Positions 1 through 28,685 of a DNA stretch of 64,000 bases are shown here, piece by piece. How positions within the stretch are numbered: position 1 is the stretch's first letter; every line of letters begins with the position of its first letter. Source of the stretch: Allacma fusca (taxonomy: Eukaryota; Arthropoda; Collembola; Symphypleona; Sminthuridae). The position numbers were made by a program, and so were the translations under genes. Below the pieces are notes generated by a model. That model searched no databases. It saw only the letters and a list, made by a program, of their open reading frames with translations, and was not told the DNA's origin. The stretch covers positions 70,853,067-70,917,066 of the forward strand of contig OX359245.1 in assembly GCA_947179485.1 (NCBI GenBank), read 5' to 3'.

Positions 1-493
1 TGACGCCAAACGCTGACCAAACATAATTATAAGAAAAGGAAAGGAAATGAGTCAGATTATTTAATAAACAATAAGAATAGGAATAAGATTTGGATTAAGA
101 CACGTAGATTTAGTACAAGTTCTAATCTCGACTTCAAGCAAGCAACATCAAGAGGAGCCGCACCTAGAGTCCATTCCCTCCGGGATGGATCTCAAAAGGT
201 AGCAAGCGGGGCAACATGAAATTCGGAGAATTTCAGGAAGAAGAGATTCAGAATTCAAATTCTATTTTGTGTTAAATGTTAATTGTTCAGTGTAAATTGT
301 ATCAGTTATAGAAACAATAATCGGCCAAATAAATCAGACAGCTTTAGACCTACACAACAGAATCAATAGTTCCATTTATTCATGTGTTTCACCAACATCG
401 AAAACCATAATTCAGGGGAATGGAACGCCCGAACCTAGGCTACATTGTCTATTACCCACACAACATCAATACCCGGGTGATAGCAACGTAACA
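1..493 (+). repeat. 5' LTR (incomplete at window edge)
   Basis: This copy matches the 3' LTR from its 84th base, so about 83 bases lie before the window if the 3' LTR really starts at 28110. Identity is perfect over 1-483. The next ten bases end in CGTAACA (487-493), the exact inverse of the TGTTACG that opens the 3' LTR, which makes 493 the likely LTR end. Two AATAAA signals are at 63-68 and 328-333. Confidence 0.9.
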
Positions 494-1173
494 TGATGTT
501 TCTGCCAGGCCTTCGGGTTTTTTTGGTAAGGACCCGGAGGATCCGTAGGTCGGGGACCTGCGGATGACCCTGAAACATAGACCAAACTTTGTAGCAAGTA
601 AGGTCGCAGTTTTTCAAAATTCATAGGATGGAAGTATGGGGTCCGACGAGGAGGAAATATTCTCATTTCTCTCCAGGGCCACCCTAAACTTCTCGTGAAA
701 GGCAGTTATAACATGCAACAATGTTACCTCAAGAAAGAAAATTTGGCCATTATCATCACGCGCGGATTCAAATAACAGTTCAGAAATCCTAGTGCGGCAC
801 TATAAAAAGAACTATTTTTACGGCCGGAAATATTATTTTAAGTGACCAGTGAAATTGGGACTCTTCCCAACCGGAAAATTAGGGGAAGAGGACGTCCAAT
901 AAGGTAATACAAATTTTTCTTTAAGGTTCATGAATTTCATGTTTAGGAGCTCATTATTTTTGTAACGTAGTTACGAGGCGCACTTTAATCTCAGGAGTAA
1001 TTAACCAGAATTTAGGTGCAAATCATAGATTCAAATTAGAAAATTGCTCATATATGTATATGTATTTTGAGGGCTTTTCAGAGTACATAGTAGGTGTTTG
1101 TGCATAAAAATTTTCACCAAAATTAGCTTCTTCCCGTAAAAATAAGTCTTTCTTCTGTTTTTTTAGACGCCTA

Positions 1174-2197
1174 AAGTGCCGGGCTTGAGCGTAGGCATAA
1201 ACAGTGTTCGTATTGTAAAGAGAACTATTCCGGCTGAAGGGCCGACGTTAATTTGAGCGCAGTATAATAGTAATCTTTCTCTTCGTAAGTTTAAGTTCCT
1301 AATTTCAAAAGGGCCGTTTTTGAGCGTTGAAATTCTTTTAACTCTTCAAATTACTTTTCAAAGTTTTGGGAAACCCAGGCTAGGGGATAGGATCCCAAAA
1401 CGCAATTAAAATCTTTCAATTAATTGGGACATTTTTTATTAATACAAGACTCTCAAAATTCACTTTCCAAGCTTAGTTTAAAGCAAAAATATGATCTATC
1501 TTTCAGTAAATAACTCAAAAATAATTTTCACTCTCTTCTTTCTCTACATCTTTTCTCCTTCTAGTATAAGCACATTTGAAAGGCCGACAGTCATTGAGCG
1601 CAAATGTCTTTAAAATTCTTTAACCTCCAAATTACGTAATTAAGAGCCCCTTGGCTAGGTGGCAAAACCCAATTAAAACTCTTTCGCTGAAAATTACTTT
1701 CTTTACCTGATGTGTAGGGTTACACGGGTAACAATAGGATCTATCATAAACTTTTCACAAACTTCTTTTCTTCTTCCATCTTTCCAAATTCTACCAGAAG
1801 TGCCGGTTTGAGCGCTGGGTAATTAGGACATAATTTGTCATGGTTTTTGGCAAATATTAGGACTTTAAAGTTAATCCGGAAGGCCGAATGTGAGCACGGA
1901 GCATATCAGATTTCAGTTAGTCATTTTGCAAATCAAAACCTACATAGCTCAGTTAGAGAGCATAGGTAGATCAGACCATCTAAAGATTATAGTATGTAAG
2001 GTGAACAAAATTTTCTCGGAAGGGCCAAAGATGAGCACCGAGGTGATTAGGACAGTTTAATTAAGGTTAGAACAAAATTTAGTCCAAAGGGCCGAGGTAC
2101 ATTGAGCGTGGACACATTGGCATAGTACATAAGCATACATATAAGAAAATTCTCATCTACGTAGTTTTAGGGATTCAAGGGCCGAAATGTGAGCGGA
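1174..2197 (+). repeat. Spaced GGCCGA...GAGCG motif, nine copies
   Basis: Copies begin near 1174, 1236, 1307, 1579, 1797, 1879, 2019, 2086 and 2177. Each has (A)AGGGCCGA or AGTGCCGG, then 4-10 variable bases, then TGAGCG or TGAGCAC. The intervals vary from about 60 to 270 bases. The core is kept while the DNA between is not, so the motif itself may be selected. Confidence 0.7.
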
Positions 2198-2992
2198 ATC
2201 ATTGTTGTATATAAGTTTTAGTACACGTAGAATCCGAGAGGCTAGGAAGATTAGGAGGGACCTTATGGTTTAGTAGGGTTCGAGTCATTCCAAGCACGGA
2301 GGTGATCTGATGGAGTGCCGACAAAAGTACCGATAAGCCTGTGACCTACTAGAGGTAATCGGAGAGGCTATGATTGACGCACCGATATAGGTATATGTTT
2401 GTAATGTGCCCGAGCTAACGGATAGGTAACATCAATGACTATTACTAGTAAGGAGGTCCATGGTTTAGTGGATAGGATAACAGGGGACATTCTAAAGCAC
2501 GGATGTTCACTTTAAAATCTATGTATGCGGTTTCCAGCTATGGCCATACATAGGGACTTTCATATTTATTACTTCTTCCATAGATGACTCATGGTTTTGA
2601 GTGCATCATAAGTTTAGCCATTCTCGAAGGATTTTGCTAGAGTAGAGAGAATTGGCATAAGAAACCACAGGCTCATGGCTTTTGAGAGTTGGTTATAGGG
2701 ATAGGAATTCAGTAAATTCTGGTGCTTTCAGTTCTTGCTGTCTAACAACAGATACAAGCCTTGCTGATGGTAGGATCGGTTCAAGGAAGTTCTTAGGTAC
2801 GAATTAGGACGCGAAACATATCCTTTGGGGCAGAAGGGTAGTTAGTAGCGAGGAATACAGTCCTTATTAATTCTGGGAATCATTACAGGAGTATTTAGGG
2901 AAATTTAGGCAACACCGGCCCGAATGCGAGGCGTGTTGAAGGACAATAAGACTGATAATTTAAGGAGTTAGACGCAACAAGCCATTGCAAAT

Positions 2993-3270
2993 AAGTAAGT
3001 TTAAGAGGGTTAAGTTTTAAGGTGAATAAGTTTAAGAGCAGTAAGTTGAAGGAGGATAGGATTAAGGAGACTAAGTTTAGAGAAGGATTAAGTTTTACAA
3101 GGACACTAAGTTTTAAGGGGAATAGGTTTTAAGGAGTTTAAGTTAAAGAAAGTAAGTTTATGACAGTCTAGGTTTTAAGGGAATTAAGTTTAAAAACAGT
3201 TAGGTTTTAAGAAGGAAATAAGTTTTAAAGGAAATTAAGATTAGAAAAGATTAGGTTTTAAGGAAATTCA
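2993..3270 (+). repeat. C-depleted TAAGTTTTAAGG array
   Basis: About fifteen degenerate copies of TAAGTTTTAAGG with a period near 18-20 bases fill this stretch. Only about nine C residues occur in some 280 bases of the plus strand. Several units include GTAAGT, which resembles a 5' splice site. Confidence 0.7.
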
Positions 3271-3645
3271 GGTGGTAACACCAGGAGGTACTCATTGGAA
3301 ACTTTAGGATTAAAACAATTAAGCTTAAGACAGGTCACAGTTAAAGTTAGGGACGTTCAGGGATTGAACACTTAGGTTATAAGCACAGAAAAATTACTTT
3401 TCCAAGTTTTCATAACCGATTGGCAAATTAAGCTTAACAACTACGATTACATAAGCATAAGCATACAAGGCAAAATTTTAGGAAACGGTTTAAGTTGAAA
3501 TTTGGCATAAGTTTTAAGAAGGTTTTCAGGATTGAAATTGACAAAAGAACTCTCACAACCGTCAAAACAAATTCATAAAACCAAACTCTACGAAACGCCT
3601 TAGCATTTTTCAGCCCATCAAGAAAAAGTTAGGACGTTTACAGGT

Positions 3646-6600
3646 ATGGAACCCGAAAAGAACCAACATCCATCAAGAAGGGAACCACCACCTGCACCTT
3701 CAATACCATCTCGAAGGACTACGCGATCTGCAGGACCAGTACCACAGAATGAAACAGGCTTGGAGGAGATCCTCGCCCGTAGGAAAGAGGAGAGGAAAGC
3801 AGCAAAACCCAAAGCTAATACAGCAACGGCAGGTGTAGACCTCTCTTCAACGTCTTCAGCTTCGACATCTACAGTCATGGAAGAATCCGGCAGTACAACC
3901 CTGGCATTATCTGCACAAAGTCCATCGGGCTTGCAGGCCATGGGGCACGGAGATAATCCTGACAATAATGATGAAAGTATGGATGTGTTCTTGGACACGG
4001 TGTCAACACCTGTAACAGGTACGACAACCAGTCCCAGACGAACACCAACAGTATCGACAGCGCAAACACCAAAGTCTTCAAAAACAAAGGTGGCGCAAGG
4101 ACAAAATCTCCACAGACTAGCTATGCAACGAGAATTACGCGACCTCGAGGTAACCAACCTGGAGGGCCAACAGGTCCAACAAGACCAGGAGGTTGAGGAC
4201 ACAGGCGAATTCATGCTAAATGCTAGAGGAGACATGGTTTTTGTCAGTCACGATGCTGACCCAACGATCAAGGAAATCCTGTCGCAATTCAATCAACCTG
4301 AGGAAAGACCAACTAGTAGCGCTGCCATGTCATCATTTGAAATACTCACGGATCCTGGAAGCAATCATGCAAGCGTAGAGGAGGTCGAGCAAGGATTTGC
4401 AACTCCAGAAAGCGAGATGGAAGACGTGACCAATGAATCACCCAACAATGTGGTTGTCAGCAACTCGACAAACCCAGTTGGCAACGGAGACATTCCTCAA
4501 GACACGAGCGTACAATCCCAACAGGATGTACAAAGTCAAGGAATGTGCAGCAAAGCTACTGGACAAACAGAACAACAGGTTAATCAGCAAAGCTCAACGG
4601 AATTGGATGACTTGGAGGATTCCAATAGACCAATTGCCATAGCAACAAGTACACCAGAGATTATCCAGCAAGGGAATCTCAGTACACACTCATCATTTAG
4701 GGACAATTTAGCAATAACACAATCGGACGAGTCAACCGAACAGAGCGAACAAGGTGACTCATCAACAGGAGTGCCACGCACTAATAACAGTATAGGGAGT
4801 GATCGCGACCAGGTCACTACTCAATTAAATCAGCAGTTATCAAATTTAAGTATCAGTGACCACCGTAAAGCTTCACAGTCGAATACGGCAGTTTCTCAAC
4901 AACTAGATATACAACAACTTGTGCGAGATAGGTTTCTATCAAGACCACCTCCAGGATTTGCCAATAGAGGAGACGTAGGCTTTCAAAGGACACTCAGCCG
5001 GGTGTCTGAGTCTACAGAACAGGAAGGCCCAGTCGAAGATCAGTTACCACTGATCAGAGAAGGGCAAGATAACATCCAAAGAGTGGAAGAAAATTTCGTA
5101 CAATTAGTGACAGGTACAGGAGTGATAGTACCAGCGGGTTCGTTTCAACAATTAGTGACCACCGCAGGCTTCCAACGGAACTCAGTGGAAAATTTTCTGG
5201 TAGTTCGAGGATTGGAAGGACAACTGATAGAGGTGTATCACAGGTTAGCTAAAAATCTTTATACAGGTACAGTCCAGTGGACACATTTTTTCCTTAGATT
5301 AGCTGAAGTCACCCACAGATGGGACAATAACAGAGATCCAAATAGGGAAGAAAGGGAAGTGTTACGTACACGTGCCTTTGAGTACGGTCGGAACGTCAGG
5401 GACAACATTTTCATCCCCACCGACGTCATCCGAAACCTTCTAGAGCACCGGGTATTGTCGTTGAGAAGTCACCAGGCACACCAGGATAGCCAGATTTTTT
5501 TCAACGATACACCTAGGTACACAACCGTGATACAATCCGGAAGACTTAGTGAAAATCTAGAATTTGGTCAACAACGACAAGAAAGACGAGTCAGCAGCGA
5601 GAGTAGGCCAGGTCCAGAACAAGATCCAAACAACAACGGGACCACCCAGCAAAGTGTAATTGACTCCAGCGCTGACGACATCATTAGCAGGTACCTTAGG
5701 TACGATCAAAGAAACCCACCAGTAACACGGAATCCGGTTACGGGTTCGTTAGAACCAGCATCTAGAGCTACGCTAAGGACCATCTCAGGCGAGTCAACAA
5801 TACAACCCGTTACGTCACGAAGAATTTCACCGGAAAGCTTGAATACCAGCTCAAGCTCAATCAACAAGGCTATAGCACAAGCAATAGCCTCAGCAACACG
5901 TCAAGCAGGTTTAAAAACTCCTCGAAATCGGAAGTTAAGCAACTCCGATCGCGACCATCTCAGACCAGGTAACCAGGTGACGGACAGTAACCAGGTAGAT
6001 TACTCATCACCCAGGTCACAACTTTTCCAGAAATCGGTGAGAAGACATTACAGGGTAAATAGTGCTGAGGAACACAGCAACTTAAATCCCAGGACCAGTC
6101 CACAGGGAATTTCGACACGCGAGAGACCGAGCAACAGCCGTTGCGAGACAGCCATTCAGAAGGGTAGCCCAAGAGCAACCACTACATCACCTACAGTCCA
6201 GACAGGTAATCAGACACCAGCAGGGAGCTCTACGGCACAACCGAGAGTGACCCCGAGGTCCAGTAATTCCTGTCGCTCCACACCTACAACAGGTGAAAGA
6301 GGGCAGTCAAGCCCACACAGCAACTCTCACGAGATAACACAGCAAATTAACCCAGTACACATCTCACCAACCAGTCAGAATAGACAGGTTTCAACGGAAA
6401 ATACGCCAAGGAACCGACCAACTCAACCTAATCTGCAATTTAGACCACAACCCACCCAAGACGAGTTGGAGACACCAACCGAGGAGGTCGAGACCACCCA
6501 AATTGGTAGTACATCACAGGCTAACGTTAAGAGGGATTTAACAACAACAAAGTTGTACGTCAACACAGATTCCACCCAGGCAAACAATAACGAGCAACTG

Positions 6601-6993
6601 GTACACCGAGTTTACCAGTCACCAGGAGGTCGAATCTACGTACACCCACCCGTACATGCTCTGCGAGCACCGCCACTTGACGTTAGTGAGACAGCTTTAA
6701 GAACATTGGTGCAAGTAGGGAGACTACTAAGAGAACAGAATCCGTCATTAACTATTGCAAATACCATCAGAAATTCTGACACAGGTACTTACTATCAGGC
6801 ATTTAGACCCCAAGACAGATTTACCGTCTATCAATCACCTAGGGGCTCGTTATATAACAGCCTACCGATAGGACGCACAGGTATACACCGCCACAATTTA
6901 CGAGGTCGAGACATCCTGCAACGAGCAACCAACAACGACAGGACCATCATAGAATGTGGAGAGCTTGTAACAGCACCACAACCACCACCTTAA
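3646..6993 (+). CDS. ORF1 of the giant retrotransposon, upstream of gag
   Basis: ATG-initiated, 1115 residues, no family recognised. Most of it is disordered and rich in S, T, Q, N and P. Two parts look folded: about residues 480-620, with hydrophobic helices around FLRLAEVTHRW, and the C-terminal 130 residues. The latter has two copies of a YQSPxGxxY motif, and a related GPSGRVY motif lies after the stop codon, in Gag. The frame ends at a lone TAA (6991-6993) and stays open in the same frame for another 3.2 kb. An ORF before gag is unusual in animal gypsy elements; plant Ogre elements have one, but no homology is claimed. It could be an N-terminal domain of a very large Gag polyprotein. Confidence 0.75.
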   Translation: MEPEKNQHPSRREPPPAPSIPSRRTTRSAGPVPQNETGLEEILARRKEERKAAKPKANTATAGVDLSSTSSASTSTVMEESGSTTLALSAQSPSGLQAMGHGDNPDNNDESMDVFLDTVSTPVTGTTTSPRRTPTVSTAQTPKSSKTKVAQGQNLHRLAMQRELRDLEVTNLEGQQVQQDQEVEDTGEFMLNARGDMVFVSHDADPTIKEILSQFNQPEERPTSSAAMSSFEILTDPGSNHASVEEVEQGFATPESEMEDVTNESPNNVVVSNSTNPVGNGDIPQDTSVQSQQDVQSQGMCSKATGQTEQQVNQQSSTELDDLEDSNRPIAIATSTPEIIQQGNLSTHSSFRDNLAITQSDESTEQSEQGDSSTGVPRTNNSIGSDRDQVTTQLNQQLSNLSISDHRKASQSNTAVSQQLDIQQLVRDRFLSRPPPGFANRGDVGFQRTLSRVSESTEQEGPVEDQLPLIREGQDNIQRVEENFVQLVTGTGVIVPAGSFQQLVTTAGFQRNSVENFLVVRGLEGQLIEVYHRLAKNLYTGTVQWTHFFLRLAEVTHRWDNNRDPNREEREVLRTRAFEYGRNVRDNIFIPTDVIRNLLEHRVLSLRSHQAHQDSQIFFNDTPRYTTVIQSGRLSENLEFGQQRQERRVSSESRPGPEQDPNNNGTTQQSVIDSSADDIISRYLRYDQRNPPVTRNPVTGSLEPASRATLRTISGESTIQPVTSRRISPESLNTSSSSINKAIAQAIASATRQAGLKTPRNRKLSNSDRDHLRPGNQVTDSNQVDYSSPRSQLFQKSVRRHYRVNSAEEHSNLNPRTSPQGISTRERPSNSRCETAIQKGSPRATTTSPTVQTGNQTPAGSSTAQPRVTPRSSNSCRSTPTTGERGQSSPHSNSHEITQQINPVHISPTSQNRQVSTENTPRNRPTQPNLQFRPQPTQDELETPTEEVETTQIGSTSQANVKRDLTTTKLYVNTDSTQANNNEQLVHRVYQSPGGRIYVHPPVHALRAPPLDVSETALRTLVQVGRLLREQNPSLTIANTIRNSDTGTYYQAFRPQDRFTVYQSPRGSLYNSLPIGRTGIHRHNLRGRDILQRATNNDRTIIECGELVTAPQPPP
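6991..6993 (+). other. Lone in-frame TAA between ORF1 and gag
   Basis: The codons around it are CCT TAA CAA CAA. Upstream the frame is open from 3646 and downstream to 10212. The first ATG after the stop is at 8614, just before the capsid-like region. Readthrough would give a product of about 2188 codons. The context is not the classic stop-CAR-YYA signal, so a mutation or an alternative start cannot be excluded. Confidence 0.6.
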
Positions 6994-9900
6994 CAACAAA
7001 CATCGAGAAGCAACGAGTCATACGTCCAGGGTGACACCCTAAGGTCACGGACAGCAACACCCGCATCAACAACACGTGCAGCAACGACGTTTGCAGTACC
7101 AGCCAGACCAACTGGAAGGTTTATAACTAGGTCAGCAAACCGACTAACGACACCGACAGCTCCGACTGTCCCCGTCAGACCGAATTCAGCAGTAGCAGGA
7201 CCATCTCGAGTAACAACAACTCCAACTACAAGTCAAGGTAAAGTCAGTTGGCTTGACGACTTACAATACGGAGTTAACATTTGGACAGGACCAAGTGGCA
7301 GAGTATACACCAGCGAGGACGAAGCAACCGAGGACGAATTAGTGCCAAGCAGAATAACAGTGAGACAATACTCTAAGATCGCCCGAAAACAAGACAGATT
7401 CAGAAACCAGGGGGTAGAAAACGAGTCGACTTGGACAGGTCAAGTGAGACGCCTGATCTATTATAACAGAAGGGACGGTATTATACAACGAAGGTTCAGA
7501 CCAACTAGGGATTCAAATTTCGAAGCATTTGCAGCTACAAGAGCTGAACACGAAGAAATTGTTCTGAGTGAACACCCGATATTTACCTTCTGGAATATAA
7601 TCACCCGAAGATCTTTAGATCCAGGGCAGATCTCCAGCTACATCGCACCCAATTTCAGACTTTACCATCGACACATCAGTCTACCAAACGGCGTTCGCAG
7701 ACAAAGGGTACCAACAGGCTTCTTGGAAAACATCGAGAACGAACACGACCACCAAGAGGCACTGAATAGATTAATTCACGATCCTAACGTGGAAATCTTG
7801 AGTGACACGTCCAGCGAGGAAAAAGAAGAGCAGGTAGTACAGAGGGACACTCCAAGACGTGAGAGTGGTCAACATAGCAGTGCACAGTCGAGCGCAGAGA
7901 CAGAGCACATCTTTATTGGAGTTGACGAAGAGGACTTCATTGTTCCAGAAGTACCAGGTCAATTCACGATAAGAATCTCTATAGACGACGCCTACGACGC
8001 AGCGTTCAGAGCAATCGAAAGGGACGAAGAAATACAAGAGGAGGTCCGATTTGTGGATAATACCGGAGAAACTCACTTCTTCCCAAGAATCCGACCTCGA
8101 GACCTGAGTCCGGAAACTCAAGTTGCACTCACTCAAGTCAGAAAGAGACGTAAACCCTTACGAGCACGCCGTCAAATTGGAAATAACCAACCCAGACCAC
8201 CAGGCCCAGGACCAAGTGGATCAGGGAGAGGAAATCATTCACGAGGAGCTAACAACAACAACTCCCACAACCAGCGACCATCTCAACAAAGGTCAAACCC
8301 AGGTCGAGGAGGCTCGAGGGGAGGCAGACACATCGGAGGCAGACGGAGAGCAAGGAGTGACCCCGGGAGTTCCGGAGGAAGTAGTTCATCATCCAGCTCC
8401 AGTAGTAGCAACCCAAGTAACCCTCACGACTTCGAAGCCTTCGACAACTGGAGGGATAGACAGATTGTAAATAGAAATAACATCTTCAACCAGGTCAACG
8501 TTAACTTCATTAACCCATACGTACCAATCAATCCAAATCAGGGAATACGTATCGAAGACGTTGCAGACGAAGAGCAGGTACGAATAATTCCAAGGAGACA
8601 TCTGGACGACGACATGACCGCCCTCATGTTTCCCAAAGTAGAATTCAAACCGGGTGTAGATGACCCAGAGACAGCCTTCGCAACAGCCGAACTCCAGACC
8701 AACAGGTTCGGAGGAGACACCATCATAACCAGGATGCAATATGTACAGATCATCTTTGACCCACCCGTCAGGGACTGGATCAGAAACTGGATAGCAGAAC
8801 GAAGATTACATGAGGAACAACCATACGACACCATTGACTGGGACGAATTCAGAGAGGAATTCCTAATAAGGTATAGTATTACCGACCAAATGATACGTAC
8901 GCTGATGGAAAAGCGAAAGATGCACACAGATGAAGATCCATGTGCATACATAGATGCGAAACTAGCACTAATCAATAGAGTCGACAGATTTATGCCCGAA
9001 CTAGAGAAAATCAGACTCTTACGCGCAGGTTTAACATCCGAATACATAGTTTTCTGCCGAGGATGGACGGCAGGAACGGTAGCAGACTTCATAGAGGGAA
9101 TAAAACAGTATGACGAAGACCGAAAGACGGACGGCGCGGAATCTATTGAGACAAGATTTGCCAAGGTCCAAGAAATGCTAGAGAGATTGACATCAGGAAT
9201 GAAACAAGTTCCAGCGGAAACAACTGTAGTGAAAATAGCTGCAGTGAGAGAACAACAGGACTATCGGAGACCTGAAAATAGACCCAATGACCAACGAGGA
9301 CGAAGTCCAGGTCAGGGAAACTTCAATAACTCACGGAATTCCAGTCCAGGTTACAGCAACAATAACAATTACCCGGACAGGGGACGTAACAATCAAGGTT
9401 ACGATGACCGAAGGAATTATGGGAACCGAGGTAGATCTCCAACACCTGAGAGATTCTACAATAATCAAGACAGGAGTAGGCCTCAGTACAGAAATGATGG
9501 CAACAACTCCAACAATCAAGGTTACCCTCAGAGGAACCAAAATTTCGGATCCAGACAAAGTCCGAATCGACAATACTATAACAACAACCCTAACAACCAG
9601 GGAAATCGTCAATGGAATGACCAACAGATGAACCAAGGATACAACCAATCTTACAACGGCCATAACAGCCAAGGATTTAATCAACCTCAAGGCTTCATGC
9701 CACCTCAGGGGTTTAATCCGAATCAAGGATACCCACCACAACAGGGTTATGCACCGTTTCAAGGTTATGCACCTACCCAAAGTTATGGACCATCTCAAGG
9801 ATACGTACCGCAACAAGGATACGGTCCAGGACAAAATGCAGGGTACGCCAACCCTGGCATGCAACAAATCCAGGCCAACCCACAAGGTTATCAGAACCAG

Positions 9901-10212
9901 GGTTACCAGCCAAACAATAGCCAAGGAGGTCAACGACCCCAACAGTACAACAACAATAACAACAGGAGTAGAACTAACTCCAGGGACCGGAACAGCCAAA
10001 CTAATGACAGAAACAACTCCTGGAGAAATCAATCGGACCGCCAGGAGCAGTCACAACCGATACCAGGACAATTGGCGCTAGAATCCACCCAAACCGACAT
10101 AAAATGTTTCGGATGTGGAGAGATGGGCCACTTGAGAAGAAACTGCCCACATAAAAGACAGTCTAGCCCATATCCGTCGGGAAACTCACAGAGGGGGACG
10201 CACCCCCAGTAA
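6994..10212 (+). CDS. gag: Gag polyprotein with CCHC zinc knuckle
   Basis: The frame is open from the codon after the ORF1 stop. A GTG occurs at 7342, but no ATG before 8614. From about 8600 to 9130 lies a helical capsid-like region (MFPKVEF to GIKQYDED), of the type found in retrotransposon Gag. Before it are an RGG-rich stretch and a run of ten serines. After it come about 300 residues rich in N, Q, G and Y with QGY repeats. The end carries a perfect knuckle, C-x2-C-x4-H-x4-C, from 10105, which binds RNA in other Gags. It forms the particle and packages the RNA. Lack of a normal start suggests fusion to ORF1. It ends 20 bases before the pol ATG, and pol is open in the -1 frame from 10167, so a -1 shift is possible. 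Confidence 0.85.
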   Translation, partial: QQTSRSNESYVQGDTLRSRTATPASTTRAATTFAVPARPTGRFITRSANRLTTPTAPTVPVRPNSAVAGPSRVTTTPTTSQGKVSWLDDLQYGVNIWTGPSGRVYTSEDEATEDELVPSRITVRQYSKIARKQDRFRNQGVENESTWTGQVRRLIYYNRRDGIIQRRFRPTRDSNFEAFAATRAEHEEIVLSEHPIFTFWNIITRRSLDPGQISSYIAPNFRLYHRHISLPNGVRRQRVPTGFLENIENEHDHQEALNRLIHDPNVEILSDTSSEEKEEQVVQRDTPRRESGQHSSAQSSAETEHIFIGVDEEDFIVPEVPGQFTIRISIDDAYDAAFRAIERDEEIQEEVRFVDNTGETHFFPRIRPRDLSPETQVALTQVRKRRKPLRARRQIGNNQPRPPGPGPSGSGRGNHSRGANNNNSHNQRPSQQRSNPGRGGSRGGRHIGGRRRARSDPGSSGGSSSSSSSSSSNPSNPHDFEAFDNWRDRQIVNRNNIFNQVNVNFINPYVPINPNQGIRIEDVADEEQVRIIPRRHLDDDMTALMFPKVEFKPGVDDPETAFATAELQTNRFGGDTIITRMQYVQIIFDPPVRDWIRNWIAERRLHEEQPYDTIDWDEFREEFLIRYSITDQMIRTLMEKRKMHTDEDPCAYIDAKLALINRVDRFMPELEKIRLLRAGLTSEYIVFCRGWTAGTVADFIEGIKQYDEDRKTDGAESIETRFAKVQEMLERLTSGMKQVPAETTVVKIAAVREQQDYRRPENRPNDQRGRSPGQGNFNNSRNSSPGYSNNNNYPDRGRNNQGYDDRRNYGNRGRSPTPERFYNNQDRSRPQYRNDGNNSNNQGYPQRNQNFGSRQSPNRQYYNNNPNNQGNRQWNDQQMNQGYNQSYNGHNSQGFNQPQGFMPPQGFNPNQGYPPQQGYAPFQGYAPTQSYGPSQGYVPQQGYGPGQNAGYANPGMQQIQANPQGYQNQGYQPNNSQGGQRPQQYNNNNNRSRTNSRDRNSQTNDRNNSWRNQSDRQEQSQPIPGQLALESTQTDIKCFGCGEMGHLRRNCPHKRQSSPYPSGNSQRGTHPQ

Positions 10213-10232
10213 TTGAAAATATCCAAGAAAGA

Positions 10233-17423: not shown

Positions 17424-17433
17424 AAGCGAATGA
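17170..17433 (+). CDS. Small coiled-coil protein E
   Basis: 87 residues from ATG 17170. Residues about 10-65 form a strong coiled coil (QQELQQVQEEIRELKKQ) and the end is acidic. Its TGA overlaps the next ATG as ATGA (17430-17433), a layout used for termination-reinitiation in many compact genomes. It is the best of the five small frames together with B. Confidence 0.55.
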   Translation: MSSRKTVPEGLRELEQIRQITEKHSATLRTRRTQIQQELQQVQEEIRELKKQAKHLKEEALKKPEKVDDTQLVPERGREDLDQSESE

Positions 17434-17756
17434 GCACCACCAGATACCTAACAACAATACCAAACTGCGTCAGTTTTGGTCAAAGCGAGATTGATCTCAA
17501 AATCGGAGATCGCATAAATCTCATTAGTTACCTACAACGACAAGGTCGAAGGAGAATCCGGTACGTAGGTACGTACACAATTATTAAAACAGATTACTGT
17601 AAAGTATTTTATCTTCAACCAGATGTCAGAGAACAGAGGGTCACGTGCATCCGGGTCTCGAACCAGCGAGACTCCACGCCAAGACGCCCTACCCGCCGTC
17701 GACAGGGACGACGACGATCGACCACGTTATTGGACCCAATACGTGAGTCAAACTGA
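17430..17756 (+). CDS. Small basic protein, 108 residues
   Basis: Starts at the ATG that overlaps the stop of coiled-coil protein E. The first 75 residues alternate hydrophobic and polar positions with K, R and Y (GDRINLISYL, YVGTYTIIK), which looks like a small beta-rich fold. The last 30 residues are strongly basic with repeated RRR and may bind nucleic acid or target the nucleus. No family recognised. It lies in the pol frame, after the extension. The next protein starts 134 bases before its end, in another frame. Confidence 0.5.
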   Translation: MSTTRYLTTIPNCVSFGQSEIDLKIGDRINLISYLQRQGRRRIRYVGTYTIIKTDYCKVFYLQPDVREQRVTCIRVSNQRDSTPRRPTRRRQGRRRSTTLLDPIRESN

Positions 17757-17949
17757 AGTGGAAACACCACAAGCAAAAATTTTACCAAACTCAGATACGG
17801 GACGACTTGAAGTTGTTCTCAGAGTAGACGGGAAGTTACCCTATAGGATTATCGTCCAAGGACGAGATGGACGAGAAATCGTAACTCATTCAGTACATAT
17901 CGGAGCTCTCAGAAAACCTAGAGAGTTAACAATAGATTATCGCATATAA
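17623..17949 (+). CDS. Small protein, 108 residues, before an open in-frame extension
   Basis: ATG 17623, overlapping the previous gene by 134 bases in a different frame. A hydrophilic start rich in S, R and D is followed by a beta-like part (RLEVVLRVDGKLPYRIIVQG). The TAA at 17947-17949 is again a lone stop: the same frame runs open from 17950 to 20466. So it may be the N-terminal part of the next, larger protein. Confidence 0.45.
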   Translation: MSENRGSRASGSRTSETPRQDALPAVDRDDDDRPRYWTQYVSQTEVETPQAKILPNSDTGRLEVVLRVDGKLPYRIIVQGRDGREIVTHSVHIGALRKPRELTIDYRI

Positions 17950-20497: not shown

Positions 20498-23400
20498 ATG
20501 ATAATGCCCGTCAACGCCAGTGAGGAAAAAGAGTTAGAAGATTTTCTTAAGGAAAATCCAACAGCAACGGAAATATCGCCGAGCTTAATAGCCTTACCAG
20601 GTGATATCCAAAGGAAGGCTCATTACCTAAACGAAACTTCTGTAGCCAAAGTATGGAACCAAGCTTTAGGCAAAGAAGTGGACGCGGAAGAATCCGAAAA
20701 CGGGAGAGAGCGACGACATGCTCCTGAACCCACCTCAAAGGAAGAGGAACGACGACAAAAGATTCGAGACCAACGGAAATTACCGCAAGCTATTTGGCTA
20801 ATGTCACAAGCAATACGTGACGGTTACCATCTAACAACTAAAACTTTACAATCAGTCGCAATGGACTTAATAACAAAACCAATCCAGTTACCACTGCAGA
20901 CCAAATACGAAATTTGGAAGGAGTACGAGATACAGTACGGGAAATTCATCAACAAAGTCATCCAAATTTTGGGACTTAAAAACACACATACACGTACCAG
21001 GCGAAGTATCTTGGCAAAAGACCAGATAAATAACCTACAACGCCAGATGCAGAACAACCCTCACAGTATTACCAAAGGGGAAGACTTTGTTCACCCCACC
21101 GAGGAAATTGCAATAGGTGAAGTCGTACACTTCGCACTAGCAACAACAATCACAGAAGCAAACTGGACGATAGTTTTGCTCACACCACACATATACAACG
21201 GAGTTGACCATCTCGAAGAAGAAGAACTCAAGGGATGGGAGACAAAGGCACACGCCAACGTCTCACAAACCCACCCACTCTTCCAGCGAACGTCGGAACG
21301 AGCAGCCAGAGAACGGCAGAGGAGAGATGCATTCGTAGGACCGACCAACGCATGGTCACCCGTCAGCTATAGCAAACAATTCTTAAAACAACAGCTACAG
21401 CTTATGCTTGCACGGATTGAGGAAGAGGAGGCTCACTCATCGTCAGGAAGACCTACAGGGATTATTCAACAGCTTGTACGATGTACCCTCAGAATGGTAA
21501 TCTATATTGGCACGTCCGTTGGAATGGACTTCGGAGGGAACCAGGACCCTATACGAAAAGGTGACCCCGGAAGAAGCCACCCACGAAGGACAGAGGGAGC
21601 AGAAGGACCGGTTTTGACCTCAGAAGAGGAACCGGCTGTGCCAACGGAACAAGCGGTGGAGGCTCAAGAAGAAGGAGCCGGATCATCAACAAAAGTAATC
21701 AAGGAAGATGTCTTAGACGACGAAAAAAAGCCACCAGCAGAACATCAGGTAGATAGTTCATCGGACAACGAGACAGACAGCAGGTGGGTGAAGACCAGAT
21801 GTGAATATTGCCCACTCAAACACGGCCATAAGCCACACGTAAGACCAAAGACCAAGTTAGCGGCACACGAAGCTTGGCAAAGACAAAAGGATATACCTGT
21901 ACAATATATCCGAAGAAGCAGACCAGAGTTGGACAGGTTGTACGGAAGAGACAATGCTCCAAACTGTACATTCCAGTATAGAGGACGACAACGAGGTCCA
22001 GAGCCAGAAATTGAACGACCCAGGGTTAGAGTTTACTCACCCATTAGGACTGTAATATTCAACGAAACTAGAGACAGACGAGGATTCAGGTCACCATCAC
22101 CAGTACCATCCGCGATAGCAGGACAACCCATACCACCCGTTGAAGACAACCTGAAGTCCAGACGAGCTAGACAACGTCAACGAAAAGTGGAGTTCAAGGA
22201 AGAACGCCAGGAGAATCCAGAAGCTCCAGCACCAGAAGATCCACTGGCACAACCCGACTCACCTGATGTAAGATTCGTTGATTTAGCTCACGTATCATTT
22301 TACATAGGAGTCCGTGGATGGATGGTAGCACCAAGTTGGGAAGACGAGGATGCGGAAATAGTCATCTTTACCAACCCGAATGAGACACAGTTATACAGCC
22401 AACTGGATCCGGTACGACTTCAAGTGAGAAAAATGGTGGAAAGGGCCAATGACCCATTGGACCACTCACCGCCAAGATTTCCGGATCAAGTATTGGAAGA
22501 CATATCTGGAGACGAACGTCATAGCCGGATAGAAGCACAGTACTCCAGGAGAACCAACTACTTCAGCAGCAACATGGACACCAGGGAGAGATCCACCATG
22601 TGTCCTCATTGTTACCAGAAATCTACCATCGACCCAGAGAGATTTCCAACATACAATGTCTCACATCGTTCAATCAACAGTCCAGAACAAAATCTAGTAA
22701 GATGGCTTAACAGAATGTACAGGGAGACATTCATCGAGAGACTCAACATCCACCAACAACCTACTCAACCACCTCAACTACGACTCGAGCAGTTACAAAG
22801 GGCGCTTAGCACCTTAAGCGAACCCAGAACAGATGCTCATGAATCCAATATAGAATACGCCGAACATCAGGCAGGAATAGACTACAACAATCACGGAGAA
22901 TTAATCCGGGAAAGAAGGGCATTGCTGTATGATGCAATGGACCATCCCACAGACTATCGCAGACTAGACCCAAGGGAGCGAGACCTGCTCATCCTATACA
23001 GGCAAAGTCGAAGAAACGTACCCATGGAAAATACCCGTCTGGAGACAATGGCAGGAGACATGAACATCTCACCAGGGGAAATGATACCGAGACTTTGGAC
23101 AACACTGTTCAATGGTCAGAGAGGTATTGATATTTACCAAGTACCAACACATCTAACATGTCGAGAACATCAGGGAGTAATGCAAGGGCTCACGGGAACC
23201 GAGCTACGCAGATTGATTACTCAGATGTGGTTTGACATAGGAACTCAGCCAACCTGGCGAGAGCAAGAAATATGGATAAATAGTTTCCTACTGAGAGGAG
23301 ACGCCATCACCGGACGCGGAGAGAAAGCTTTACAACAACTAGCGAGTATACCAATACACATGCTAAGTTTTCAAGAATTTGCGAGTATGACCGAAAGAAT

Positions 23401-24103
23401 CATAACTCTTTATCATCAGGACGCGGCAATTCAGGAGTGGCGACAATTGGGAGCAGTAAACCAGAGCAGCGGAAGTCAACCCAATCCAATCGACGACATA
23501 GAAGAAGAACTAGGACAATGGGAAGACTGGATATTCGCAATGAAACTAGCAGGGGAAGGCCAAAAGCCAACTACCCTATACGCCAGAAGATTAAAAGGAG
23601 GAGTAGCCACTCTAAGACAACCCCGGAAAACAGGTTCTTTCAGAGATCTAAACGAACTTGTCACGCTACGAATCTGGCAAAGAGAACACTTTCACAGGAT
23701 TCGGGAGCAAATCAGCAACCGTGGAGACGGACCAAGTTACAAACCATATCAATTATCTCCAAGAAATGAGAGACGACCAGGAATAACACCAATACATATG
23801 ATACCAAGCGCGATAGACCGATTCCAAACACCCCAATGGCGATCAGTTGTCATTGATGGAAGACCAGACGAACCCGATCTAATAAATCTTATCAGAACAC
23901 TCAGAGGTCGAACAGGAACTGAAATAGTTTTCCGAGACCTTGGACATGATTTTATACAGGAAGAACTCAGGAGACCCAGTGACACAACAAAGAACCAGCT
24001 ATCTGTCCATAACAAACCCTGTAGAGCACAGAAGGCTAATGGATCAGTTATGGGAAAGGTCATCACGTGCAAGATGGGACCCGGAGATCGTATCCGAGAA
24101 TAG
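20498..24103 (+). CDS. Large unknown retrotransposon protein, 1201 residues
   Basis: Starts at ATG 20498, 31 bases after the previous stop. I do not recognise the family. The first 170 residues are helical and end in a dibasic RTRRS stretch. A mildly hydrophobic segment (RCTLRMVIYIGTSVGM) is near residue 330. A possible zinc site, CEYCPLKHGHKPH, is near residue 440 and another Cys pair, CPHCYQ, near 708. The last 450 residues look folded, with many W, L, I and R and paired helices, and end close to a shift in composition. There is no signal peptide, polymerase or protease motif. The long intact frame next to 100 % identical LTRs suggests it is functional. Confidence 0.75.
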   Translation: MIMPVNASEEKELEDFLKENPTATEISPSLIALPGDIQRKAHYLNETSVAKVWNQALGKEVDAEESENGRERRHAPEPTSKEEERRQKIRDQRKLPQAIWLMSQAIRDGYHLTTKTLQSVAMDLITKPIQLPLQTKYEIWKEYEIQYGKFINKVIQILGLKNTHTRTRRSILAKDQINNLQRQMQNNPHSITKGEDFVHPTEEIAIGEVVHFALATTITEANWTIVLLTPHIYNGVDHLEEEELKGWETKAHANVSQTHPLFQRTSERAARERQRRDAFVGPTNAWSPVSYSKQFLKQQLQLMLARIEEEEAHSSSGRPTGIIQQLVRCTLRMVIYIGTSVGMDFGGNQDPIRKGDPGRSHPRRTEGAEGPVLTSEEEPAVPTEQAVEAQEEGAGSSTKVIKEDVLDDEKKPPAEHQVDSSSDNETDSRWVKTRCEYCPLKHGHKPHVRPKTKLAAHEAWQRQKDIPVQYIRRSRPELDRLYGRDNAPNCTFQYRGRQRGPEPEIERPRVRVYSPIRTVIFNETRDRRGFRSPSPVPSAIAGQPIPPVEDNLKSRRARQRQRKVEFKEERQENPEAPAPEDPLAQPDSPDVRFVDLAHVSFYIGVRGWMVAPSWEDEDAEIVIFTNPNETQLYSQLDPVRLQVRKMVERANDPLDHSPPRFPDQVLEDISGDERHSRIEAQYSRRTNYFSSNMDTRERSTMCPHCYQKSTIDPERFPTYNVSHRSINSPEQNLVRWLNRMYRETFIERLNIHQQPTQPPQLRLEQLQRALSTLSEPRTDAHESNIEYAEHQAGIDYNNHGELIRERRALLYDAMDHPTDYRRLDPRERDLLILYRQSRRNVPMENTRLETMAGDMNISPGEMIPRLWTTLFNGQRGIDIYQVPTHLTCREHQGVMQGLTGTELRRLITQMWFDIGTQPTWREQEIWINSFLLRGDAITGRGEKALQQLASIPIHMLSFQEFASMTERIITLYHQDAAIQEWRQLGAVNQSSGSQPNPIDDIEEELGQWEDWIFAMKLAGEGQKPTTLYARRLKGGVATLRQPRKTGSFRDLNELVTLRIWQREHFHRIREQISNRGDGPSYKPYQLSPRNERRPGITPIHMIPSAIDRFQTPQWRSVVIDGRPDEPDLINLIRTLRGRTGTEIVFRDLGHDFIQEELRRPSDTTKNQLSVHNKPCRAQKANGSVMGKVITCKMGPGDRIRE

Positions 24104-24758: not shown

Positions 24759-25490
24759 ATGGAATACAAGTGGTATATTCTTTTGAGCCTTGCAATAACT
24801 CTAATTGCAATGGACGTTTCCGAAACCAGACCGATAGCGCAACCAAGTCCAGAACCATGGGGAGGACCACTGATGGCAGCTTTGGGAACATCAGCCGGAA
24901 AATGGTTCGCAAATTACATGGTACCAGCCTTAACCGTCGGAAGCGGAGCTATTACAGCATCAGTGTTGTCACAAAAGGACCCAGTAGTACATATACTACA
25001 TCATAAAGATGACGGGAGACTAGCCATAGTGCAGTATGACCCGAACGACCCAAACGTAGAAGCCCAAAGAATAATGGAGAGGAACCAACAAATGGCTTTA
25101 CTACAACCCCAACAACAAATTATACAAAACCAACAGCCCACCATGCAGAAGGATAGCAGACCACCTTGGATGGAGCAATTCAACGAAATTGATTGGAAAT
25201 CCAATGAGGTTCCAACATCAGACACGGATTACACCGTAGTCATTATCAGTTCATTCGGTTGTATTACCACAGTAGTGATATTTATATTCACAGTGATACT
25301 ATACCGAATTCGAATGCAGAAAAAGAAATCAAATCAACAAACAGCGAACGAGAGAGAATTAGACAATGTTGCAGACACAGCGGCATTAGTCCAAAATTCT
25401 GTAGAGCAGTTAGTCGGATGCAGAATAGTGAGGCCCAACATACAACCACAGGCCAGCCGACACACAACCAGAGCAACTGTACAACTGTAA
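24759..25490 (+). CDS. Small membrane protein, env-like layout
   Basis: The ATG at 24759 opens a 243-residue protein with a signal-peptide-like start (KWYILLSLAITLIA). A segment rich in G, A and small residues follows (AALGTSAGKWFANYM, then LTVGSGAITASVLS), then a Q-rich part. A single long hydrophobic segment at about residues 159-183 (IFIFTVILY) is followed by basic RIRMQKKK and a tail of about 60 residues. This is the layout of a type I membrane protein. It stands in the env position, last before the 3' LTR. No N-x-S/T site or furin site is seen in the outer part, and it is short for a full envelope, so it may work with one of the upstream proteins. Confidence 0.65.
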   Translation: MEYKWYILLSLAITLIAMDVSETRPIAQPSPEPWGGPLMAALGTSAGKWFANYMVPALTVGSGAITASVLSQKDPVVHILHHKDDGRLAIVQYDPNDPNVEAQRIMERNQQMALLQPQQQIIQNQQPTMQKDSRPPWMEQFNEIDWKSNEVPTSDTDYTVVIISSFGCITTVVIFIFTVILYRIRMQKKKSNQQTANERELDNVADTAALVQNSVEQLVGCRIVRPNIQPQASRHTTRATVQL

Positions 25491-28099
25491 ACACCAACCC
25501 AACCGGGAAGGACCAACGCAAGAAAGAAAACAATGAAGAAAAATATGCAAAACCATAAAAATTGTATGGATAAATATTTAAAAATATTTATTAGTTATAA
25601 GATAGTATTAGAAAAACATTAGAATAAGTAGTTATAAGTAGAATAAGGTTAGGAAAAGAAAATATAGAAAACCAAGATTCATATACAACAAAACTATAAA
25701 AATGCAATGAAAATAACAAAGTTCAAATAACGAACGAAAAGTTCAAGTTAGTTAAAGAGGCAGATTACCAATACGAGTAAAGTGAGAATAGTCTAAAGAT
25801 TATGTGATTCAAATCAATATATCTTTCGTGTCTCGATGGATTCATTATCCATTTTCTTTCCAATTTTCTATCCACCTCATTGATTCCAGTGATTAGATTT
25901 TTATTGGTTATCAACACTATCACATCGGGCTATGTTTTAAAAACAACAGTTTATTTTGTTAACGAGATGAAACTGTTTCAAGATAAGGTTCAGTTCTAAC
26001 CAAAATATTTGGCCAATTATAATTCCTAGAGGCTTGTTCACTCGACGACCAATAAGTGAGCATTGTAATGCCCTGCAGTTTTTATTAGGTTATTCAGCTC
26101 CATATGAGAAGGATAAATTTATATTTCTAACCTACTCATCGCTTGGGATGAGCGGGATAACAAATTTCCAGCAAAAATCAGAACCCTACATAAGCAAGTT
26201 CTCTACGATCAGGATCAGTTTGCCTTTTAGCTTCAGTTTAACAAAATTACCTAGCTAGATGTGCTAATAACAATACTTTAGGTACCTAGAAAGATAGTTT
26301 AAGTAAAACAGAAGTCCAAAAGATAGATTCTTCCAAAAGAATTTCTGTAGTGTACAAATTATTTACTTGCAAAATGTATCGCATTTCAAATGAAAGTTGA
26401 CATGAATGTGCCCAGATCAGAAGGATCCTATGAGCACTAGATCTCCTATGAGACAAGGCAAGAAAAACACAAAATTACATACCACGAATAGGTAGGAGGA
26501 ACTTTAAATAAAAATATAAAAAGTAAGAAAATTACAGTAATGGAAATATTTGATAGAGGTATTAAAGGCAACAAGAATTACATTGCACACAGTGTTGATA
26601 TCTTTTTACAATTATCATTACATATCAAATAACACCAGAAAAGATTTACGGAATCATTAAATTCACTTCGTTTATATACAATGATTAAATTCAACAATCA
26701 GTGGAAAGGATCAAAAATTTAAATCTTAAAAGATCAAACGTCTTATTAGCTTCGATAAATTCCATAGTTTCCCAAGACGAATTGTATTAAGAAAACACAA
26801 TTCTGAAAGAAATTTTAAACAGAAAATTTAGCTTACAAATTCGACACATTCCATCAAATAGGATTTTTTACAGATCAAGGTATATATATATATATTTATG
26901 ATTATCACCAAAATACATTCCAATCCCAGTTGAGGAAATAGTTCACGGTACAATATGATTTTATGTCTTATGGAGTAGTAAGAACTACTCACAGAATTTT
27001 ATGGAGCACGATGCCTTCACATTTGTTGAAATTGCCAACAGTTGTGCATGAGAAGGACATAATTCCTAATCTAGCCACCAAAGAACAATTCTAAATTGTC
27101 TTGGCATTCGTTTAAATTGATATTGCCCTTCTCGTGTTATCAGAGGTGACACACACATTGTGTTTCCACAAAATATTTTCGTATTAGGGAGCGACACTTC
27201 TGCGCTCAGGCTGTCACTTCAAATCCTTAATAGCGGTATTGGGGAATCACACATTTTCCTGACAAAATTTTCCCACAACGATTTGTCTGTGACATGTTAA
27301 ATTGTTTTACAAGGAAACTCACGGGATTTTATAAGCTATAAGTTCAATAACCCTTAAGCGACATTTAGATACTACCCTAGTAGCAGCAGTAACTGACAGT
27401 AGTCACAATGTTGCAACAACTAGTATTCGGTATCAGAAAATTAGAAATCAAACGAAAATAGTACCAAAGGGACATATTTCATGTCTGCCTTCAAGTAATC
27501 TTGACAGTTTTTTATAAACAAATTCTTTTCAAAACATGTGTACAAAAATTTCAATTCTGCTACGATGTTTCGAATCTCACATATTTTAGATATGACACAT
27601 AACATTAAAAATCAAGTTAAATCGTGAGACGACTTTTTAAAGTTTACATATTGTCAAATGACTAGAAAAATATTGTATGTGTAATTGTTATTATTTTACA
27701 AAATGCTAAATAACGTGTACGGAATATTGATTATATATCTTGTTGTGCAGCAATGTTAAGATATTTAAGCCATTCTATCAAAAACTATCGTGTAGAAGGT
27801 TCTATTATGTCATTTTCTAGCATCTGTTTCACTTCATCGTTTACAATAACACCATCAAATATTGTACAGCATTACAAAAGTATATACACATATGATGATG
27901 AACATGTATGATAATTGTATGAAATGCCTTAACAATAACAATACCCATGATAACCATTACGACCATGCTACAAAGATAAGCCAACATCTTACGACCATGA
28001 TTAGCTACAAAGTTCGGTAACAAAAATAAAAATAGTATAGTTACAAATGATATAATCTTGAACTTCGACAGAGGACATTGTCGAGGACGACAATTACCC
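25491..28099 (+). other. Non-coding 3' region of the retrotransposon
   Basis: 2.6 kb between the last gene and the polypurine tract. It is AT-rich, with a short TA run at about 26881-26897. I find no coding frame of note and no repeat of the leader motifs. Long non-coding 3' parts are common in large LTR elements. Confidence 0.6.
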
Positions 28100-28109
28100 A
28101 GAAGAGGAA
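28100..28109 (+). promoter_or_regulatory. Polypurine tract for plus-strand priming
   Basis: The ten-base purine run AGAAGAGGAA touches the TG of the LTR. This is where reverse transcription of LTR elements primes the plus strand. Its position is the main reason for placing the LTR start at 28110 and not at 28193. Confidence 0.75.
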
Positions 28110-28685
28110 TGTTACGGATATATTATAAATAGAGTAGAATAAGCATAATCTAAGTCAGCAAATAGTTTGGAAGGTCGTAAGCAAAGGCTACGTGACGCCA
28201 AACGCTGACCAAACATAATTATAAGAAAAGGAAAGGAAATGAGTCAGATTATTTAATAAACAATAAGAATAGGAATAAGATTTGGATTAAGACACGTAGA
28301 TTTAGTACAAGTTCTAATCTCGACTTCAAGCAAGCAACATCAAGAGGAGCCGCACCTAGAGTCCATTCCCTCCGGGATGGATCTCAAAAGGTAGCAAGCG
28401 GGGCAACATGAAATTCGGAGAATTTCAGGAAGAAGAGATTCAGAATTCAAATTCTATTTTGTGTTAAATGTTAATTGTTCAGTGTAAATTGTATCAGTTA
28501 TAGAAACAATAATCGGCCAAATAAATCAGACAGCTTTAGACCTACACAACAGAATCAATAGTTCCATTTATTCATGTGTTTCACCAACATCGAAAACCAT
28601 AATTCAGGGGAATGGAACGCCCGAACCTAGGCTACATTGTCTATTACCCACACAACATCAATACCCGGGTGATAGAACTGTAATA
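28110..28685 (+). repeat. 3' LTR
   Basis: It starts TGTTACG directly after the purine run AGAAGAGGAA. A TATA-like TATTATAAATA is at 28121-28131. From 28193 to 28675 it is identical to the 5' copy. The last ten bases (28676-28685) differ from the 5' copy at several positions, so either the LTR ends at 28675 or this outer edge is altered. An AATAAA signal is at 28255-28260, with a second at 28520-28525. Confidence 0.9.
28121..28131 (+). promoter_or_regulatory. TATA-like box of the LTR promoter
   Basis: TATTATAAATA lies 11 bases inside the LTR. A start site about 25-30 bases downstream would place the U3/R border near 28155. This part of the 5' LTR is outside the window, so only the 3' copy can be seen. 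Confidence 0.45.

What the first reader, a model, noticed from the sequence alone, without database searches (positions are those of the whole stretch)
1..28685. A 28.8 kb animal gypsy element with about 13 kb of extra coding DNA
Intact Pol, identical LTRs and long intact extra frames argue for a young and perhaps active element. ORF1 before gag, plus at least four large or medium genes after pol, is far from the normal gag-pol-env plan. I recognise none of the extra proteins. Giant gypsy elements are known (plant Ogre; planarian Burro), but this gene content does not match what I know of them.
Basis: partly seen in the sequence, partly recalled or inferred. Interest (0 to 1): 0.9.

Follow-up and report, generated by a model that had tools for sequence, protein, structure and literature searches.

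The report
Giant springtail retrotransposon with extra genes
A 28.8 kb retrovirus-like jumping element in a springtail carries about nine extra genes of unknown origin that natural selection keeps working, and it appears to have cleared start codons from long stretches of its message so that ribosomes can scan on to later genes.

Summary
The element is a Ty3/gypsy-type LTR element of about 28,768 bp (576-nt LTRs, ATAT target duplication, PR-RT-RH-IN domains in order); its 5' end lies 83 nt left of the window. The host is the springtail Allacma fusca. One 1.9 kb segment has at least 39 other copies; pieces of 5 to 14 of them were compared. Every extra frame is under purifying selection (dN/dS 0.08-0.40). 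'ORF1' is not a separate gene: in 13 of 13 other usable copies it is one frame with gag (2188 codons). This copy is defective: four in-frame stops are seen in no other copy examined. After pol lie six small conserved genes (A-F; A-E overlap the pol extension), then ORF4, ORF5, ORF6. New: two stretches (4.0 and 2.5 kb) nearly lack AUG in all frames; in the second, seven of the eight shared AUGs are gene starts, all in weak context. AUG-creating variants there run at 0.35 of expectation against 0.78-1.46 elsewhere. Best reading: a complex-retrovirus-like element using -1 frameshifting and long-range or leaky scanning, as in rice tungro bacilliform virus but longer and in an animal. Selection is shown; scanning is inferred (no RNA or ribosome data). 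What the extra proteins do is unknown.

The parts
1..493 (+). 5' LTR, right-hand 493 of 576 nt; its first 83 nt lie left of the window
494..3645 (+). Leader of about 3.2 kb with no coding signal; 34 AUGs in 501-3500; primer-binding site not identified
3646..10212 (+). Long gag frame; in this copy interrupted by an in-frame stop at 6991-6993 that 13 of 13 other usable copies lack; CCHC knuckle at about 10099-10152
   Evidence: start 14 of 14 rows, end stop 14 of 14; dN/dS 0.15, 0.12, 0.06 for its three parts; Pfam zinc knuckle above cut-off, Retrotrans_gag 14.7 bits against cut-off 24.1
4608..8613 (+). AUG-poor stretch 1 (all frames), inside gag coding sequence
   Evidence: 0-3 AUGs in each of 14 rows; out-of-frame ATG 3 against 16.6 +/- 2.8 with protein fixed, the most depleted triplet; AUG-creating variants 15 against 41.2 expected
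8614..10212 (+). Internal gag AUG (14 of 14 rows) and CA-NC part, candidate second gag start
10179..10185 (+). GGGAAAC slippery heptamer in gag phase, for -1 frameshifting into pol
   Evidence: 15 of 15 rows
10193..10207 (+). Hairpin of five G-C pairs, 7 nt after the heptamer
   Evidence: fold z -2.47; stem kept in 14 of 15 rows
10167..16004 (+). pol frame (PR, RT, RNase H, about 600-residue spacer, IN); in 14 of 14 other copies the stop here is absent
16005..17423 (+). pol C-terminal extension, open in 13 of 14 other copies (one has its own private stop); a stop at 16851 is private to this copy; end stop 15 of 15
   Evidence: dN/dS 1.13 but stops avoided, 2 of 130 against 9.2% expected
15566..18028 (+). 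AUG-poor stretch 2: eight AUGs shared by 15 of 15 rows, seven being the starts of A-F and ORF4, one a 5-codon uORF (17867)
   Evidence: AUG-creating variants 7 against 19.8 expected
16030..16242 (+). gene A, 70 aa, coiled-coil-like
   Evidence: start and stop 15/15; dN/dS 0.10; heptad test P 0.001
16246..16488 (+). gene B, 80 aa, coiled-coil-like
   Evidence: 15/15; dN/dS 0.21; P 0.001
16588..16758 (+). gene C, 56 aa, coiled-coil-like
   Evidence: 15/15; dN/dS 0.08; P < 0.001
16792..17037 (+). gene D, 81 aa; heptad test not significant
   Evidence: 15/15; dN/dS 0.11; P 0.116
17170..17433 (+). gene E, 87 aa, coiled-coil-like
   Evidence: 15/15; dN/dS 0.40; P < 0.001
17430..17756 (+). gene F, 108 aa
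   Evidence: 15/15; dN/dS 0.10 outside its overlap with ORF4
17623..20466 (+). ORF4 (947 codons in the family): RS-rich stretch by eye, two hydrophobic segments near its end; in this copy broken by a stop at 17947-17949
   Evidence: start 15/15, this stop absent in 14 of 14 others, end stop 5 of 6 rows; dN/dS 0.14
20498..24103 (+). ORF5, 1201 aa, no relative found
   Evidence: start 6 of 6 rows; dN/dS 0.11 to position 24000
24759..25490 (+). ORF6, 243 aa, signal-peptide-like start and one transmembrane segment
   Evidence: stop 9 of 9 rows; dN/dS 0.21; TM; in-frame AUG at or two codons after 24759 in the 6 sequences printed of 8 rows
28100..28109 (+). Polypurine tract
   Evidence: sequence
28110..28685 (+). 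3' LTR
28686..28689 (.). ATAT, right half of the target duplication (left half is outside the window)

Best explanation
This is a recently inserted but defective copy of a giant Ty3/gypsy-type element family of the springtail Allacma fusca. Shown: in the family there is one long gag frame, a pol frame in the -1 phase, six small genes A-F and three larger genes ORF4-6, all under purifying selection; A-E overlap the pol extension in another frame; AUG codons are selected against, in every frame, across 4608-8613 and 15566-18028. Inferred: Gag-Pol is made by -1 frameshifting at GGGAAAC. Shorter (spliced) RNAs that enter the AUG-poor stretches let ribosomes scan to the internal gag AUG at 8614 and, from the second stretch, through seven weak-context AUGs, so that A-F and ORF4 are made by leaky scanning or reinitiation. 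ORF5 and ORF6 probably come from further spliced RNAs. ORF6 is probably a membrane protein; the coiled-coil genes and the RS-rich ORF4 are probably assembly or RNA-regulatory accessories, as in complex retroviruses; that last step is a guess.
For: Structure. Selection on every frame. Small-gene starts and stops 15/15. Third-position excess in the A-E frame, 120 of 238 variants, P 4e-8. Pol-frame stops avoided over A-E. AUG depletion with protein fixed. AUG-creating variants 0.36 and 0.35 of expectation against 0.78, 0.85, 0.89, 1.46, 0.78 in five controls: (P 2.5e-6 and 9e-4). Pyrimidine at -3 of all seven starts, G at both gag AUGs. Slippery heptamer and hairpin. Precedent, RTBV scanning 900 nt through ORFs free of internal AUGs: PMC5902531 passages.
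Against: No RNA, ribosome or protein data. Scanning over 4 kb has no precedent that I know of. AUGs abound just before stretch 1 (20 between 3646 and 4607), so it needs an RNA that skips them, and no splice site could be pinned: 2 of 11 starts have a top-100 acceptor within 20 nt, P 0.27. The synonymous-shuffle test alone is not significant for the three parts of stretch 2 tested. With the pol-frame protein fixed, stops in the A-E frame are not fewer than expected, 9 against 9.8, and codon usage favours the pol frame there. The conserved uORF at 17867 has a strong context.
Confidence: 0.62

Rival explanations
1. The genes are real and selected, but each is expressed from its own spliced RNA, and the AUG-poor stretches serve something else, such as preventing truncated Gag products from internal initiation on the full-length RNA.
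For: A strong acceptor-like site lies directly before the ORF4 AUG (rank 15 of 2322) and another 18 nt before E (rank 30).
Against: Over all 11 starts acceptor-like sites are not enriched (P 0.27). AUG is avoided in all three frames, which fits scanning better than avoidance of truncated Gag alone.
Confidence: 0.25
2. The extra frames after pol hold an unrecognised envelope gene (ORF4 end, ORF5 and/or ORF6), so the element is a gag-pol-env retrovirus-like element with accessory genes.
For: Hydrophobic signal-like and membrane segments at the end of ORF4 and in ORF6; ATAT target duplication, which I recall from some insect errantiviruses; recent insertion of diverged selected lineages.
Against: No match of ORF4, ORF5 or ORF6 to a Pfam family above cut-off or to a solved structure with E below 0.05; structure prediction of part of ORF5 failed.
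Confidence: 0.3
3. An ordinary gypsy element that carries non-functional insertions or chance open frames.
For: No recognised domain in any extra frame.
Against: dN/dS 0.08-0.40 in A-F and ORF4-6, conserved starts and stops, third-position excess.
Confidence: 0.01
4. The AUG scarcity is a by-product of base or amino-acid composition.
For: Both stretches are poor in T, and ATG is rarer there already by dinucleotide content; the shuffle test is not significant for the tested parts of stretch 2.
Against: Depletion remains with protein and codon content fixed in stretch 1, and new AUG-creating variants are depleted in both stretches but not in five controls.
Confidence: 0.08

Closest known systems
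Burro giant gypsy elements of planarians (PMC6431247, passages)
   Same: Gypsy-type pol; total length around 30 kb (Burro exceeds 30 kb with LTRs); much extra coding sequence.
   Different: Burro has a 4,873-residue ORF1 polyprotein with env-like sequence between gag and PR and domains such as BIR and BCL2-like; none of these was found here, and here the extra genes are separate frames after pol plus a long gag.
Ogre elements of plants (PMC6431247, passages)
   Same: Very long gypsy-type elements with extra sequence of unknown function.
   Different: Ogre length is largely long LTRs (1.9-6.5 kb) with 1-2 extra ORFs; here LTRs are 576 nt, and the frame before gag is part of gag in 13 of 13 other usable copies.
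Rice tungro bacilliform virus and badnaviruses, leaky scanning (PMC5902531, passages)
   Same: Coding stretches cleared of internal AUGs ahead of later start codons; weak starts; a reverse-transcribing element.
   Different: RTBV scans about 900 nt in a plant; here stretches of 4.0 and 2.5 kb in an animal LTR element with seven starts. Translation itself is not shown here.
Insect errantiviruses (recalled; only a search listing seen)
   Same: gag, pol, then a gene for a membrane protein; ATAT-type target site (recalled for some).
   Different: More than twice their usual length (recalled); no env homology found; accessory genes overlapping a pol extension.

Membership tests
Ty3/gypsy (Metaviridae) | LTRs flanking one insertion, with polypurine tract and short target duplication | tested here: met
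   576-nt LTRs, PPT, ATAT duplication in the window copy and in one other copy
Ty3/gypsy (Metaviridae) | pol domain order PR-RT-RH-IN | tested here: met
   nearest solved relative Ty3
Ty3/gypsy (Metaviridae) | gag with capsid and zinc knuckle | tested here: met
   zf-CCHC above cut-off; Retrotrans_gag match below its cut-off
Ty3/gypsy (Metaviridae) | tRNA primer-binding site after the 5' LTR | tested here: inconclusive
   no TGG-led site directly after the LTR; judged by eye only
Burro | giant ORF1 polyprotein with env between gag and PR, and BIR/BCL2/MATH-like domains | tested here: not met
   no such Pfam match in any frame scanned; sequence profiles only
Ogre | long LTRs and a separate ORF before gag | tested here: not met
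   LTR 576 nt; gag frame continuous in 13 of 13 other usable copies
Errantivirus | env gene (F-protein type, recalled) after pol | tested here: inconclusive
   ORF6 has signal-like start and TM but no family or structure match
RTBV-type leaky scanning (mechanism) | ORFs devoid of internal AUGs upstream of later starts | tested here: met
RTBV-type leaky scanning (mechanism) | weak context of the bypassed AUGs | tested here: met
   pyrimidine at -3 for all seven starts in the window and in the contexts printed for the other copies
RTBV-type leaky scanning (mechanism) | several ORFs translated from one RNA | not testable with these tools
   no RNA or ribosome data at hand

The most novel reading that the evidence does not exclude
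An animal LTR retroelement has evolved a polycistronic translation system: selection has removed start codons, in every frame, from kilobases of functional coding sequence, so that ribosomes scan up to 4 kb to a second Gag start and, on another RNA, through seven weak starts, expressing six new small genes (five overprinted on a pol extension) and one large one.
Probability: 0.4. Interest if true: 0.85.

Novelty: new variant of a known kind. Interest (0 to 1): 0.72.

Why it matters
It shows an animal gypsy element that keeps about nine extra genes of no recognised family under selection, five of them overlapping a pol extension. The AUG-poor stretches make long-range scanning in an animal retroelement directly testable; the precedent read here is a 0.9 kb case in a plant pararetrovirus. 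Recent insertions from long-separated, selected lineages also make Allacma fusca a system to ask how so large a reverse-transcribed genome is packaged, copied and passed on.

Tried and rejected
Neutral or chance frames: rejected by dN/dS and by conserved starts and stops. Stop-codon read-through at the ORF1/gag junction and beyond pol, suggested by same-frame open stretches without Met: rejected, because those stops are private to this copy. Codon-usage scoring favoured the pol frame over most of A-E; substitution pattern and conserved starts point to A-E, though stops in the A-E frame are not fewer than a shuffle gives (9 against 9.8). Gene F as a copy of the integrase C-terminal domain: E 0.037, not convincing. 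Structure prediction from single sequences failed for F and for the last 509 residues of ORF5 (mean pLDDT 43.1 and 35.1), so no fold search was run. Viral contigs: no pattern match for ORF5, none confirmed of 11 for part of pol. BLASTP of the element's proteins against the 120 listed pol relatives: only PR-RT-RH and two zinc-knuckle matches; two rows of that call (polmid, polIN) were cut out of frame by me and say nothing. The script stopped after four regions; one search ran the rest. Acceptor enrichment at starts: not significant. Genome searches for ORF5 relatives, for LTRs and for a spliced-leader family did not complete.
Full report
What is there. The window begins 83 nt inside the 5' LTR of an LTR element that ends at 28685, about 28,768 bp in all. 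The LTRs are 576 nt and differ at 4 sites, all in the last 10 nt. A polypurine tract precedes the 3' LTR; the target duplication is ATAT. A second copy also has ATAT, and its LTRs differ at 3 of 580 sites. Pfam finds protease, RT, RNase H and integrase in order (rve 32.5 bits, cut-off 32.6), a zinc knuckle above and Retrotrans_gag below cut-off; the other frames scanned match nothing above cut-off. The best solved relative of pol is Ty3. Of 506 protein hits to pol (120 listed), the first seven are from the pseudoscorpion Cordylochernes scorpioides, 35-44% identical over 21-33% of the query stretch.

Host. COX1 of the same assembly is 93% identical to a Sminthuridae entry, the best of the 7,999 candidates scored. 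The six large contigs agree to within 0.01 Mb with the chromosomes printed for Allacma fusca, and the 14.94 kb mitochondrion agrees too (PMC10427803: abstract, passages); totals differ slightly (392.74 against 392.79 Mb).

Other copies. A 1.9 kb segment (16005-17900) gave 152 first-look candidates; 40 were scored: the window itself and 39 others at 95-96% identity. Pieces were then compared, each set including the window copy: 3450-10240 with 14 fetched copies (L040, whose match begins at 4505, was dropped from then on but still inflates the counts); 10101-18090 with 14; 17950-24000 with 5; ORF6 with 8 (L048, which covers only its right part, was dropped from dN/dS). Insertions relative to the window were dropped in these alignments.

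Selection. Pooled Nei-Gojobori dN/dS: gag 5' part 0.15, middle 0.12, CA-NC 0.06; PR-RT-RH 0.03, spacer 0.25, IN 0.07, pol tail 0.43; A 0.10, B 0.21, C 0.08, D 0.11, E 0.40, F 0.10 outside its overlap with ORF4 (0.39-0.42 within it); ORF4 0.14, ORF5 0.11, ORF6 0.21. The pol frame over A-E gives 1.13, so its residues are hardly constrained there, yet it is kept open: of 130 variants silent in A-E, 2 create a pol-frame stop where 9.2% are expected (P 5e-4), and with the A-E proteins fixed the window has 2 pol-frame stops against 15.6 expected in sum. Of 238 variants in 16005-17420, 120 are at third positions of the A-E frame. Against this, with the pol-frame protein fixed the A-E frame has 9 stops against 9.8 expected. 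All seven small starts and six small-gene stops are conserved in 15 of 15 rows. The extra frames are therefore genes.

The stop between 'ORF1' and gag is absent from 13 of 13 other usable copies; two stops in the pol extension and one in the ORF4 frame are absent from 14 of 14. The family therefore has one long gag frame. This copy is defective. Its private changes have the lowest third-position share in gag (0.44, 14 rows) and the second lowest in pol (0.45, 15 rows), as if it had been copied by others for a while; this is a weak hint. Other copies also have scattered private stops or gaps.

Age. In the two copies checked the LTR pairs differ at 3-4 sites in about 580, while LTRs of the two copies differ at 29-32 sites plus 14 gap columns; dS between copies is 0.06-0.26 outside the overlaps. 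These two are recent insertions of lineages that stayed under selection while separate; other copies were not dated.

The AUG-poor stretches. Between 4608 and 8613, 14 rows have 0-3 AUGs each in any frame, all within coding sequence. With the window's protein fixed, out-of-frame ATG is the most depleted of all triplets (3 against 16.6 +/- 2.8); 6994-8613 has 0 against 6.8 while 8614-10209 has 22 against 11.5. Between 15566 and 18028 eight AUGs are shared by 15 of 15 rows: the starts of A-F and ORF4 and a 5-codon uORF; five rows have one to three more. Variants that would create an AUG are at 0.36 (15 against 41.2) and 0.35 (7 against 19.8) of expectation; five control stretches give 0.78, 0.85, 0.89, 1.46 and 0.78 (P 2.5e-6 and 9e-4). 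The shuffle test alone is not significant for the three parts of stretch 2 tested. All seven starts have a pyrimidine at -3, both gag AUGs a G.

How it probably works. Gag-Pol by -1 frameshifting: GGGAAAC in gag phase, 15 of 15 rows, followed after 7 nt by a hairpin of five G-C pairs kept in 14 of 15; the same heptamer is used by the gypsy-derived gene PEG10 (recalled). The leader of about 3.2 kb holds 34 AUGs in 501-3500, so splicing or bypass is likely before gag can be translated. RNAs entering the AUG-poor stretches would let ribosomes reach 8614 and, on another RNA, A to ORF4 in turn. The model is RTBV, where ORFs without internal AUGs allow scanning over 900 nt (PMC5902531, passages). 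Splice sites could not be pinned: an acceptor-like site sits right before ORF4 and one near E, but starts in general show no enrichment.

What is not known. ORF5 found no relative among the 7,986 candidates scored from a database of 5.8 billion proteins; the other extra proteins were not searched there. Heptad repeats are supported in A, B, C and E, not in D. ORF6 has a signal-like start and a TM segment but no convincing family or structure match.

Literature. The listings of searches showed no description of this element, of a giant LTR element in springtails, or of AUG-cleared animal LTR elements in the held library; Repbase, preprints and most subscription papers are not in it.

Noticed in passing
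window 39935-56033: A Maverick/Polinton-like DNA transposon of about 16 kb next to the element: terminal inverted repeats (156 nt, 90% complementary) with 51-bp tandem units, and genes matching DNA_pol_B_2, rve integrase and Peptidase_C5; some frames look interrupted.
   Followed up: partly
window 61585-63104, minus strand: Two frames that by eye resemble a non-LTR reverse transcriptase remnant; Pfam gave no match.
   Followed up: no
G000 C5, C8, C12 (COX1 matches): Four near full-length nuclear copies of mitochondrial COX1 whose only in-frame stops are TGA, as in the mitochondrial code, so recent nuclear insertions.
   Followed up: no
window 484-493 against 28676-28685: The only LTR differences in this copy, 4 of 10 sites, sit at the very end of the LTR, while the preceding 566 nt are identical; unexplained.
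   Followed up: no
window 12600-14400: About 600 residues of unknown but selected sequence (dN/dS 0.25) between RNase H and integrase.
   Followed up: no
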